Assembly (NCBI GenBank): GCA_013290125.1
Contig: JABCYQ010000003.1
Span: 62,001-126,000 of the forward strand
Source: Vulcanimicrobiota bacterium
Lineage (GTDB): Bacteria; Vulcanimicrobiota; Vulcanimicrobiia; Eremiobacterales; Eremiobacteraceae
Direction of reading: 5' to 3'
DNA length: 64,000 nucleotides
Made by a program: the position numbers and the translations under genes. Of this stretch, positions 962 through 51,764 are shown piece after piece (position 1 is the stretch's first letter; each line of letters begins with the position of its first letter). The notes under the pieces are model-generated. The model was given only the letters and a program-made list of their open reading frames with translations. It was not told the DNA's origin and did not search any database.

Positions 962-3184
962 ATGACGACATGTTTGCGCGCGTCGCTCGCCGCGTCGATG
1001 CTCATCGCTCTTTCGTGCGTCCCTCTTCTCTCGCTCGCTGACGCCGGCGGCGAATCCGGTGCCGCTCCAACGCTGACGGTGCCGCTGCTCCCGGCGGCGC
1101 CCCCGCTCGATGCGACGCTTGACGGTTCTTGGAGTGCGGCAGCGGTCGTGCACCTCACGTACGAGGCGACGTATCACAGGCCCGCGCCAGAGGACACCAC
1201 CATTCGCATCGGGAGGTATGGCAGCGCACTGTACGTCGCCTTCGAAGCCCAGCAGCGCGAGCCTATGGTCGCATCGCAAGTAACTGACGGCCCCGGCGTA
1301 CTCACCGGCGACGCTGTCATGGTTCATATCTGGCCCAACGGCTTGAACGGCTTTGCCTATTGGTACGCGACGAATCCCTTTGGTGCTCGCGATCAGTTTT
1401 CGAGCGAGAACTCCGGCTACGCGCCGCCGTGGCTGGCGTTCGGTCACCGCACGATCCACGGCTACGTCGCGATCCTGAAGATTCCGTTGAGCGCGATGCA
1501 CGTGCAAAAGAATGCCACGTGGCGCATGCAGTTCCATCGCATGGTCGTCGCTTCCAGCAGCAACTACGTATGGGAGCTCGCTTCCGAGCAGGCCAGCTTT
1601 GTCGACGCACGCTACGCCGGACACGTTGTCGGTCTCGATGAAACGCAAGCGACGGCACTGCATCCGCGACTGCAACTGTACGGCCTGGGCGAGGTCGCGT
1701 CGTCTGCGGTGGGCGGCTCCACGTCGCATGTCGGCGCTGATTTCTCGCTCCCCGTAACCGCAACGGCGTCGCTCTTCGGCACGCTGCATCCGGATTTCTC
1801 GAACGTCGAAATCGACCAGCAGTCGATCTCGCCGACCGAATTCGCGCGACGCTTCTCTGAGGTCCGCCCCTTCTTTGCGCAAGCCGCCTCGAATTTCGGA
1901 CAGCAAGCAAGCGTGAACGCGCCGATGAGCGTGCTCTATACGCCGACGATTCCTACGTTCAGCGACGGCTTCGGCGCCGAAGGACGCCAAGGCACCATAT
2001 CGTTCGGCATCTTCAACGCGCATGGCGACGGCCGCGACGACGACGCGCTCGCGCTCTTCGCGAGCGATCCGCACCAGGAATTGACCGTCGGCGCGCAGCG
2101 AGTCGGTGTCGACACGACCTCAACGGATGCGTCCGGCTTCCGCGATCTCGTCGACGAGGAGAGCATCGCTCTCTTCAACCCTCACGGCCATCTGACGTCG
2201 TTTGCGAATATCGCGTCGGAGAAGGGTACCTCGGTGACCGCGCCGGGCGATGCCGAGTATTCTGACGTCGGCGAGAATTTCCAGACGTCAACGGCGCAGG
2301 TGGCCGTAGCACTTCAGAAGATGGGACCGCAGTTCGCACCCGCAGACGGCTATTCCAATCAGCCGCCGGGCGAGCCGGGCATCGCCGGCTTCACGAGCTT
2401 TGCGAGCAAGCAGATCAACTTCTCGCAGACGGCGCGCGTGCTCGACGTTGCTTTCTCGGTCAACGCCGATCGCTACCACTCACCCGACGGCAACGTGAAT
2501 CAATCCGATTTTGCGGATAGTGCGCGCGTCGATTTCAAGGATTTGATCACGCTGATGGGGATGCAAGGCGTCTCGTCGCTGCAGACGTGCGTTCCTCTGT
2601 CGCCGTCTACTTGCTCTCAGGAATTCTTGCCCTACAACAACGGCGGCTACATGGCGCAATATGCGGCGAACACTTCACACCCGTCCACGATAATGTATTT
2701 GACGGGAGAATATTTTCACGGCCGCCTGGACTCGTGGACGAGGTCGTTCGCGCTTCCGCTCGCCCAGCGCGCGACACTGGTCTTGGAAGCGGACGACACA
2801 ACGTACGTGTCGGCGCTCGCCGGTGAACCGGACACAAAGCAGTGGCTCGACCGCGCGAGCCTCAACTTTCAGTTCAACCGATCGCTCTCCGTGGATCTCG
2901 GCGCGCGCCGAATCCTTGGGACCACGCAGCCCTATGCATTTGCACCGCTCGGGCTGACGAGCGCCTTCACGGCGTCGGTCTGCCGAGGAAACGTCAACGT
3001 CTTCTATCCGATCACCGCGGGATGTACTGCCAGCGATGATGCGACGAACCTCTCCGCAGCCTTCCATTTCTTTCGCGGCCAGAACGAGCTGTATGTGGTC
3101 TACGGAAACCCGAGCCGGTTATCGACGGTCCCCGCACTGTACGTCAAATTCATTCGATACATCGGTGCCGGAAAAGGCTCCTAG
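962..3184 (+). CDS. DUF5916-like outer-membrane protein with CBM9-like N-terminus (paralogue 1)
   Basis: A 740-residue exported protein with a signal peptide (residues 1-27). Residues about 36-230 look like a carbohydrate-binding family 9-like domain: PPLDATLDGSWSAA at the start, then IWPNGLNG and FSSENSGYAPPW. The rest is rich in alternating aromatic strands and contains the hallmark PDFSNVEIDQQSISPTEF followed by RFSEVRPFF, as in DUF5916 proteins whose C-terminus is predicted to be an outer-membrane beta-barrel. Two paralogues lie at 18035-20095 and 61364-63496 and share these motifs. The substrate is unknown. AGGAG lies just before the ATG. Its TAG stop shares the palindrome CTAG with the convergent downstream gene. 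Confidence 0.8.
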   Translation: MTTCLRASLAASMLIALSCVPLLSLADAGGESGAAPTLTVPLLPAAPPLDATLDGSWSAAAVVHLTYEATYHRPAPEDTTIRIGRYGSALYVAFEAQQREPMVASQVTDGPGVLTGDAVMVHIWPNGLNGFAYWYATNPFGARDQFSSENSGYAPPWLAFGHRTIHGYVAILKIPLSAMHVQKNATWRMQFHRMVVASSSNYVWELASEQASFVDARYAGHVVGLDETQATALHPRLQLYGLGEVASSAVGGSTSHVGADFSLPVTATASLFGTLHPDFSNVEIDQQSISPTEFARRFSEVRPFFAQAASNFGQQASVNAPMSVLYTPTIPTFSDGFGAEGRQGTISFGIFNAHGDGRDDDALALFASDPHQELTVGAQRVGVDTTSTDASGFRDLVDEESIALFNPHGHLTSFANIASEKGTSVTAPGDAEYSDVGENFQTSTAQVAVALQKMGPQFAPADGYSNQPPGEPGIAGFTSFASKQINFSQTARVLDVAFSVNADRYHSPDGNVNQSDFADSARVDFKDLITLMGMQGVSSLQTCVPLSPSTCSQEFLPYNNGGYMAQYAANTSHPSTIMYLTGEYFHGRLDSWTRSFALPLAQRATLVLEADDTTYVSALAGEPDTKQWLDRASLNFQFNRSLSVDLGARRILGTTQPYAFAPLGLTSAFTASVCRGNVNVFYPITAGCTASDDATNLSAAFHFFRGQNELYVVYGNPSRLSTVPALYVKFIRYIGAGKGS

Positions 3185-50143: not shown

Positions 50144-50175
50144 GATCGCACGTGATTTCAGTAGCTCGAAAGTGC

Positions 50176-50655
50176 TTATGGAGCCGCGTTGATCTCGATG
50201 AGCCACGTTCCGTTTTTTTGTCGGCGCCACACGGTGAGATAGTCGCCGCCGCTTGCGATTTTTCGGCCGTGTATTTCGATCATGCTGCTGCAGTGCCCGG
50301 CTTCGTAGGCTTGATCGCCGTCCTGCGCGAGATGGTCCGTTCGGCAGTTTCCACTGAGGAAATGCACTTTGGTCAGGATATTCGCGATGTGAGCCTGGAT
50401 TTGGGCGCGGCCGGTTAAGATATGCGGGCCCGGACCGATGAAGATGGCCGATAGTTCGTACGGAGCGGCGGCTGCGCGAGCATCGCCTCGAGCCAGCGCA
50501 ACTTCGTAGGCCGAGTTGTCGGCTGCGATAGTGGCAAGTAGTACGCTATCGATTTTTTGCGCAGGCTCGGCTGGCGTGGATGCAGCGTGGCTGGCCGTCG
50601 AAAAAAGCGACGACGCAACACCAAACCCGAGCGCGGCCAAGGCGATCCGTCTCAT
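50176..50655 (-). CDS. Exported SnoaL/DUF4440-like protein
   Basis: About 159 residues with a signal peptide (ALAALGFGVASSLFSTASHA). The mature domain fits the cone-shaped SnoaL/NTF2 fold: NSAYEVALARGDARAAAAPY, LSAIFIGPGPHILTGRAQIQ and GGDYLTVWRRQKNGTWLIEI. Members bind or convert small molecules; the role here is unknown. ATG at 50655 is chosen over a TTG three codons earlier. It diverges from the DsrE-family gene, with only 20 bases between starts. Confidence 0.8.
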   Translation of the reverse strand: MRRIALAALGFGVASSLFSTASHAASTPAEPAQKIDSVLLATIAADNSAYEVALARGDARAAAAPYELSAIFIGPGPHILTGRAQIQAHIANILTKVHFLSGNCRTDHLAQDGDQAYEAGHCSSMIEIHGRKIASGGDYLTVWRRQKNGTWLIEINAAP

Positions 50656-50675
50656 GTAGGCCAAGTTCCATTTTG

Positions 50676-51038
50676 ATGTACAAAGTCTTGTTCAAAAGTG
50701 CTTGGGGTTCGGATGATCCGACCAAGGCCGCTTTTGCTTTTCTCCACGCAAACGCATTTGCCGAGGCCGGACACGAGTGTCAGATCTTCTTGCTCGATGA
50801 GGCGGTTTCGTTGATGCGCAGCCCCGTAGCCGAATCGGTCGTGCCAGTCGGATGGCCCCCGCTCGGTGAAGCGCTTGCGAGAGCGATCTCGCTTGGCATA
50901 CGGATCCACGTCTGAACAGCTTGCTCCAGGGCCCGTGGGGTCCTTGATGCAGACCTAGTAGCAAAAAACGCAGCGTTTGCGGCACCGGCTACGCTCATAA
51001 ACCTCGTGGAGTGGGCCGACAAGATCATGAGCGAGTAG
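50676..51038 (+). CDS. DsrE-family protein, candidate selenoprotein (in-frame TGA at codon 80)
   Basis: The first 79 codons encode a DsrE/DsrF-like thiol protein (MYKVLFKSAWGSDDPTKAAF, FAEAGHECQIFLLDEAVSLM, SVVPVGWPPLGEALARAI). A TGA follows at 50913-50915, where homologues usually have a Cys (motif CxxC in CGACSRARG). The same frame continues without error as TACSRARGVLDADLVAKNAA, then FAAPATLINLVEWADKIMSE, and ends at TAG 51036-51038. So the reading is V-U-T-A-C, a Sec-x-x-Cys pair. A stem-loop fitting a bacterial SECIS follows at 50921-50952. Sec insertion needs SelA/B/C/D elsewhere in the genome. The alternative is a Cys-to-stop mutation or a sequencing error. Convergent with the MerR gene, 2 bases apart. 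Confidence 0.75.
50921..50952 (+). promoter_or_regulatory. Candidate SECIS stem-loop
   Basis: In the RNA, AGGGCCC (50928-50934) pairs with GGGUCCU (50938-50944) over 7 base pairs, one of them G-U, with a GUG loop (50935-50937). A lower stem UUGC/GCAG (50921-50924 with 50949-50952) closes an internal loop. The apical loop begins with G and lies 19 bases after the TGA, inside the range accepted for bacterial SECIS elements. Confidence 0.6.
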
Positions 51039-51040
51039 GT

Positions 51041-51412
51041 TTAGCGAATTATCGAACAGGTCGTTGTGTCGCCTTCGCATGGACAACCGATCGACTCTTC
51101 GAGACGCCGCTTCATCTCTTGCGCCTCGATCATCAAGGCGTCCAGCTCCGCGATGCGCCGATGAAGGACGCCAAGCACCACTTCACGTCCGACCGTTGAT
51201 CCGCGTGGCTGCGACGTTATGGTCGCTAGGCCCCGAATAGTGATACCCGCCCGCCGAAAAAAGCGCAGGATCTTCAGCTGATCGACGGCATTGTCGTCGT
51301 ATTCGCGCACGCCGCGCCTGCGAGGCGGCCGGGGCAGGAGACCTGCGGCCTCATAATATCGGATCGCAGATTGTGCGACTCCAGCCTTTTTTGCGACTTG
51401 TCCGATCGTCAT
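51041..51412 (-). CDS. MerR-family regulator with C-terminal Cys cluster
   Basis: 123 residues. The N-terminal helix-turn-helix and wing are typical (MTIGQVAKKAGVAQSAIRYY, EAAGLLPRPPRRRGVREYDD), followed by the dimerisation helix and a C-terminal Cys motif (GCPCEGDTTTCSII). Cys in this position binds a metal or an iron-sulphur/redox centre in MerR, SoxR and relatives. It diverges from a small membrane protein gene across a MerR-type promoter with a 19-base spacer, so it probably controls that gene. Confidence 0.9.
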   Translation of the reverse strand: MTIGQVAKKAGVAQSAIRYYEAAGLLPRPPRRRGVREYDDNAVDQLKILRFFRRAGITIRGLATITSQPRGSTVGREVVLGVLHRRIAELDALMIEAQEMKRRLEESIGCPCEGDTTTCSIIR

Positions 51413-51425
51413 TGGAAGCTGCCCC

Positions 51426-51456
51426 TTGACTTAAAGCGCACTTCAAGTGCTATGTT
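51426..51456 (+). promoter_or_regulatory. MerR-type promoter and operator
   Basis: TTGACT (51426-51431), a 19-base spacer and TATGTT (51451-51456). The overlong spacer is the mark of promoters that MerR-family proteins activate by twisting DNA. The spacer is covered by a 20-base near-palindrome (51429-51448) in which 8 of 10 base pairs match. The start of transcription would lie only a few bases before the ATG at 51467. Confidence 0.8.
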
Positions 51457-51466
51457 CTTTTCTGCT

Positions 51467-51700
51467 ATGCAGAAGATTCAATTTTCAGCTCTCCCAACCC
51501 CCGTGAAAATCGCGGTCTGGTTCGCCTTCGTTCTCGCATGGATGGCACTCGAACGTGAAGTGATCGAGCCCCTTGGCATTTACCATTTCATGCCGTTCTA
51601 CCGAGTTCAAGGTTTTTGCGTGTGGGACTTTCTCGTCATCGCCGCGATCACAATCGTGCTCGTTCGAATGAACGCCGCCGTGCCGCGCGGGTCAGGCTAA
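51467..51700 (+). CDS. Small two-span membrane protein controlled by MerR-type promoter
   Basis: 77 residues with two hydrophobic segments (VKIAVWFAFVLAWMALE, and VWDFLVIAAITIVLVRM). No ribosome-binding site is seen before the ATG, and the promoter places the start of transcription about 4 bases upstream, so the mRNA is nearly leaderless. The function is unknown; the MerR context suggests a role in metal or redox stress. Confidence 0.7.
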   Translation: MQKIQFSALPTPVKIAVWFAFVLAWMALEREVIEPLGIYHFMPFYRVQGFCVWDFLVIAAITIVLVRMNAAVPRGSG

Positions 51701-51764
51701 TCGGTCGAGGCCACGAGGGTATCGTCTCTAGGGCTTTCCCCGTTCGGCTTCGAACGCCGGTTTT

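What the first reader, a model, noticed from the sequence alone, without database searches (positions are those of the whole stretch)
50676..51038. Candidate DsrE-family selenoprotein read through an in-frame TGA
The frame is conserved on both sides of TGA 50913-50915. The codons after it encode TACSRARGV and then 30 residues that continue the family's usual C-terminus, with no frameshift or second stop until TAG 51036. The TGA sits where homologues have the first Cys of CxxC, so Sec80 and Cys83 would form a redox pair. A 7-base-pair stem with a GUG loop lies 12 bases after the TGA. DsrE-like selenoproteins have, as I recall, been reported in environmental sequence surveys; ordinary gene finders would stop at residue 79.
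Basis: partly seen in the sequence, partly recalled or inferred. Interest (0 to 1): 0.88.

Follow-up and report, generated by a model that had tools for sequence, protein, structure and literature searches.

The report
DsrE-family selenoprotein with UxxC motif
A small sulfur/redox protein gene in this bacterium reads a UGA "stop" codon as the rare amino acid selenocysteine; the case is strong, but it is a new member of a selenoprotein family already on the books.

Summary
Window 50676-51038 (+) encodes a 120-residue DsrE protein interrupted only by TGA at codon 80, and homology continues to the TAG. The genome has the whole Sec machinery: adjacent selA-selB, tRNA-Sec (72 bits, anticodon UCA), and selD. 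Its selD and formate dehydrogenase also carry TGA at their usual Sec sites. In two other phyla, 68%-identical orthologues keep TGA at the same codon; seven 57-59% orthologues have Cys there. Purifying selection is the same before and after the TGA (dN/dS about 0.14 and 0.13). A hairpin after the TGA meets the published bacterial SECIS constraints. The three closest Sec genes share its codons (AGG GCC CGT GGG), whereas Cys orthologues encode the same RARG with drifting codons. AlphaFold gives a complete DsrE fold (pLDDT 98) with residue 80 at the DsrE/TusD catalytic-Cys position. DsrE-like UxxC selenoproteins have been published since 2005, so this is a new member of a known kind. New here: the gene sits in a 1.6 kb block absent from a congeneric genome and is found in 1 of 149 genomes of the phylum, consistent with horizontal acquisition by a lineage already using Sec. 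Biochemical function remains inferred.

The parts
50676..51038 (+). dsrE-like selenoprotein gene, 120 aa, Sec80 encoded by TGA, TAG stop
50913..50915 (+). TGA = Sec80 codon, first position of UxxC
   Evidence: TGA in L009 and L101, Cys in L102-L108 at the same codon
50922..50924 (+). TGC = Cys83, second position of UxxC
   Evidence: invariant with position 80 in the 29-row alignment
50928..50944 (+). predicted bSECIS upper stem-loop, 7 bp, loop GUG at 50935-50937
   Evidence: constraints from PMC13188914
50176..50664 (-). SnoaL/DUF4440-like protein with a hydrophobic N-terminus, divergent neighbour, part of the extra block
51041..51412 (-). MerR-family regulator, convergent neighbour, part of the extra block; C-terminal Cys residues
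51468..51700 (+). small predicted membrane protein divergent from merR, part of the extra block (start codon approximate)
50144..51764 (.). 1.6 kb block absent from congeneric genome G018, where the flanking genes are separated only by a short intergenic gap

Best explanation
The locus is a genuine bacterial selenoprotein gene. UGA at codon 80 is decoded as selenocysteine by SelB and tRNA-Sec, directed by the stem-loop at 50928-50944. The 120-residue product is a DsrE/YchN-like protein with Sec80-x-x-Cys83 at the end of strand 4, the position of the persulfide-carrying Cys of DsrE/TusD. Shown here: conserved frame, TGA/Cys interchange, presence of the Sec machinery, hairpin and predicted fold. 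Inferred: actual Sec insertion, and that Sec80 and Cys83 form a selenenylsulfide redox pair or that Sec80 accepts sulfane sulfur, so that the protein works as a thiol/persulfide oxidoreductase or sulfur carrier. The gene was probably acquired horizontally by a lineage that already decoded Sec.
For: Own genome: tRNA-Sec 72 bits, ARAGORN SeC(tca); SelB over cut-off; SelA 535 bits adjacent to SelB; SelD with TGA at its usual Sec site; FdhA with CNRTUHAPS. Orthologues: TGA at the same codon in L009 and L101 (68% identical, two other phyla); Cys in seven 57-59% orthologues. dN/dS about 0.14 before and 0.13 after the TGA. Hairpin meets published bSECIS constraints (loop 3 nt, G first, 7 bp, 19 nt from the UGA, below -7.5 kcal/mol); 8 of 300 synonymous recodings fold as well. 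All four RARG codons identical among the three Sec orthologues (chance about 0.009), unlike Cys orthologues. AlphaFold pLDDT 97.8; best PDB matches YchN, DsrE/F, DsrEFH, TusBCD.
Against: No protein-level or selenium-labelling data. The L009 hairpin is marginal (-7.3 kcal/mol, unremarkable against recodings). The functions of DsrE-like selenoproteins are described as largely uncharacterised (PMC13188914), so redox pair versus sulfur carrier is inference. The gene is a singleton in its own phylum sample, so no congeneric orthologue could be compared.
Confidence: 0.94

Rival explanations
1. Pseudogene: an ordinary Cys-type dsrE gene with a TGC/TGT-to-TGA nonsense mutation.
For: One in-frame stop at a Cys position; gene absent from congeneric genomes.
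Against: Equal purifying selection on both sides of the TGA; the same TGA in 68%-identical orthologues of two other phyla; synonymous conservation of the hairpin.
Confidence: 0.02
2. Sequencing or assembly error turning TGY into TGA.
For: The genome is a multi-contig assembly; single-base errors occur.
Against: Independent genomes L009 and L101 have the same TGA, and the hairpin matches.
Confidence: 0.02
3. TGA is a real stop and a functional 79-residue product is made, with the rest a leftover.
For: Formally open without protein data.
Against: The model puts the C-terminal part (helix 81-87, strands 99-102 and 116-119) inside one compact fold; it is under purifying selection.
Confidence: 0.02
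4. It is a Sec protein but works in metal or selenium handling linked to the neighbouring MerR regulator, not as a sulfur/thiol oxidoreductase.
For: A MerR-family gene with C-terminal Cys residues lies 2 bp downstream, convergent; both lie in the same extra block.
Against: The neighbours do not recur near L009, L101, L045 or L046; convergent genes need not be functionally linked.
Confidence: 0.15

Closest known systems
DsrE-like selenoproteins (Pfam PF02635, UxxC): Sargasso Sea, GOS, Desulfovibrio vulgaris (PMC1088965, PMC1794560, PMC2398784, PMC13188914)
   Same: Pfam DsrE domain, single Sec in UxxC, Cys homologues, bSECIS after the UGA
   Different: Host lineage and genomic setting; published sequences could not be aligned here, so sub-family placement relative to 'DsrE 1' and 'DsrE 2' is untested
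YchN (PDB 1jx7) and Sulfolobus DsrE/F-like protein (3mc3)
   Same: Fold (TM 0.78 and 0.84) and full-length profile match; YchN has Cys-x-x-Cys aligned to the UxxC
   Different: Cys instead of Sec; 16-20% identity in the structural alignment; functions not established
DsrE/TusD sulfur carriers (2hy5, 2d1p)
   Same: Fold; the TusD catalytic-position Cys aligns with Sec80
   Different: Weak sequence match (NCBIfam TusD 19 bits against a cut-off of 89); no dsrF/dsrH or tusBC partners among the neighbours examined
Cys orthologues L102-L108 (genomes in the phylum of a Terriglobia MAG)
   Same: 57-59% identity, CG(A/T)CSRARG motif
   Different: Cys in place of Sec; N-terminal signal-like extension that the window protein lacks

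Membership tests
DsrE-like selenoprotein (UxxC) | DsrE domain (PF02635) | tested here: met
   49.8 bits against cut-off 22.7, spanning the TGA
DsrE-like selenoprotein (UxxC) | In-frame TGA aligned with the redox Cys of homologues, conserved in at least two sequences | tested here: met
   TGA in window, L009, L101, L045, L046; Cys in L102-L108 and others
DsrE-like selenoprotein (UxxC) | UxxC motif | tested here: met
   U80-T-A-C83
[quoted passage not shown]
   GUG loop, 7 bp, 19 nt, -13.5 kcal/mol; the identical 7-bp core of L101 alone gives -10.1
DsrE-like selenoprotein (UxxC) | Sec decoding machinery in the genome | tested here: met
   selA, selB, selC, selD
DsrE-like selenoprotein (UxxC) | Selenium present in the protein | not testable with these tools
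   needs mass spectrometry or 75Se labelling
TusD/DsrE sulfur-relay subunit | Equivalog score for TusD/DsrE | tested here: not met
   TIGR03012 19.2 bits against 89.25
TusD/DsrE sulfur-relay subunit | Adjacent TusB/TusC or DsrF/DsrH partners | tested here: not met
   no such genes among the neighbours; only one DsrE-family match in the genome

The most novel reading that the evidence does not exclude
The DsrE fold is a frequent site of Sec gain and loss across phyla: UxxC here, with CxxU and UxxU layouts in relatives. Sec genes of this clade travel between phyla in small blocks into hosts already able to decode them, with Sec80 serving as a sulfane-sulfur (perselenide) carrier instead of a simple redox thiol.
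Probability: 0.25. Interest if true: 0.55.

Novelty: new member of a known kind. Interest (0 to 1): 0.38.

Why it matters
Standard gene callers cut this protein at residue 79 and lose its active site. The Sec and Cys orthologues at 57-68% identity, with a hairpin kept only on the Sec side, are a clean natural comparison for testing what Sec gains over Cys in a DsrE protein. It also looks like a selenoprotein gene entering a lineage that already had the decoding machinery.

Tried and rejected
Rfam scan of 50600-51100 found no match, which says little about a bacterial SECIS. MFE of the 43-nt window alone against shuffles was weak (z -1.5; L009 +0.7); the synonymous-recoding test and the published constraints were used instead. 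Viral contigs: no relative. Plasmids: only relatives with Ser at position 80 (Microvirga, Deinococcus). L010 (Terriglobia) has the TGA and the family C-terminus but frameshifts, so it was left out of the tree. SelA presence could not serve as a contrast between Sec and Cys carriers because all 29 genomes tested have it.

Full report
Observation. Pfam DsrE spans the TGA with 49.8 bits. It is the only DsrE-family match in the genome, and the search reports one TGA inside it.

Decoding capacity. The window lies in a 2.9 Mb, 55-contig, 95% complete assembly. It contains tRNA-Sec (72 bits against a cut-off of 47; ARAGORN SeC, anticodon tca), SelB over its cut-off, SelA directly upstream of SelB, and SelD. 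The selD frame reads CAG-TGA-AAK at its usual Sec site and formate dehydrogenase reads CNRT-TGA-HAPS, so this genome has at least three TGA selenoprotein genes. All eleven relatives tested in the family and class also have SelA, so the trait is older than this gene.

Comparative evidence. Among 149 genomes of the same phylum only this one has the orthologue; the other hits are distant DsrE proteins, and those that could be read across the site have Cys. In the phylum of L009 and in that of L010 there are 68%-identical orthologues with TGA at the same codon (L009 and L101), and seven loci at 57-59% with TGT or TGC there (L102-L108). More distant TGA forms are L045, L046, L056, L075, L078 and L080, all UxxC. 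In the tree the window protein and L009 form a fully supported pair (100/100), and TGA forms are scattered over the family, needing several changes (the tree was built before L101-L115 were found). Selection is the same on both sides of the TGA: dN 0.18 / dS 1.26 before, dN 0.26 / dS 2.0 after (the dS values are near saturation).

SECIS. The hairpin at 50928-50944 has a 7-bp stem and a GUG loop whose first base is the 20th after the UGA. It meets each constraint quoted in PMC13188914. Eight of 300 recodings that keep the protein fold as well. L101 and L045 have a stem at the same offset; L009 and L046 have a four-base loop, and L046 uses a different stem sequence. The window, L009 and L101 share the codons AGG GCC CGT GGG for RARG. 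The Cys orthologues encode the same residues with varied codons and lack a comparable hairpin. With 20 of 62 shared residues codon-identical in the trio, four specified ones all identical has a chance of about 0.009. L009 is the weakest, at -7.3 kcal/mol, just short of the published threshold.

Structure and mechanism. The model, with Cys for Sec, has pLDDT 97.8 throughout. Residue 80 ends strand 76-80 and precedes helix 81-87. The best solved matches are YchN, a Sulfolobus DsrE/F protein, DsrEFH and TusBCD. The TusD Cys aligns to residue 80. A role as thiol/persulfide oxidoreductase or sulfur carrier with Sec80 as attacking residue is inferred from family knowledge; nothing here measures it.

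Setting. In the congeneric genome G018 the flanking genes (hyp222, 87% identical; DUF2269, 76%) are neighbours with about 70 bp between them. In the window 1.6 kb lies between them, with a SnoaL-like gene, the selenoprotein, a MerR regulator and a small membrane protein. Gain by this genome or loss by the congener would both fit. The near-absence from the phylum and the close orthologues in other phyla favour gain. L010 also has a SnoaL-like gene next to its dsrE (33% identity), but the other orthologues do not.

Comparison with the literature. DsrE-like selenoproteins with UxxC were described in the Sargasso Sea set (PMC1088965), in Desulfovibrio vulgaris (PMC1794560), as DsrE 1 and DsrE 2 in GOS (PMC2398784), and are catalogued in 2022 and 2026 reviews (PMC9312934, PMC13188914). 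The finding is a well-supported new member, not a new kind.

Noticed in passing
L115 (G639), dsrE frame: A distant DsrE relative has two TGA codons, giving UGAU (UxxU); a hairpin meeting the SECIS rule follows the second. Single sequence; the reviews read here list only UxxC for DsrE.
   Followed up: partly
L079 (G386), dsrE frame 2042-2395: TGA at the second motif position (CKAU, CxxU) where homologues L059 and L073 have Cys; strong hairpin after it (-11.7 kcal/mol; 5 of 300 recodings as good).
   Followed up: partly
L074 (G361), dsrE frame 2009-2365 (-): TGA at a different site (about residue 51) where homologues L052 and L055 have Cys; no hairpin meeting the rule was found. Could be an error.
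   Followed up: partly
window 51425-51450: TTGACTTAAAGCGCACTTCAAGT: an inverted repeat between merR and the small membrane gene, looking like a MerR-type operator.
   Followed up: no
L010 / L110 dsrE (Terriglobia): TGA and SRARG motif present, but the frame is broken upstream and downstream of the TGA, and the gene has a signal-like N-terminus; pseudogene or assembly errors.
   Followed up: partly
G019:C13 end (L096 1944-2384): Fragments resembling the window's SnoaL-like gene in a congener, apparently degraded.
   Followed up: no
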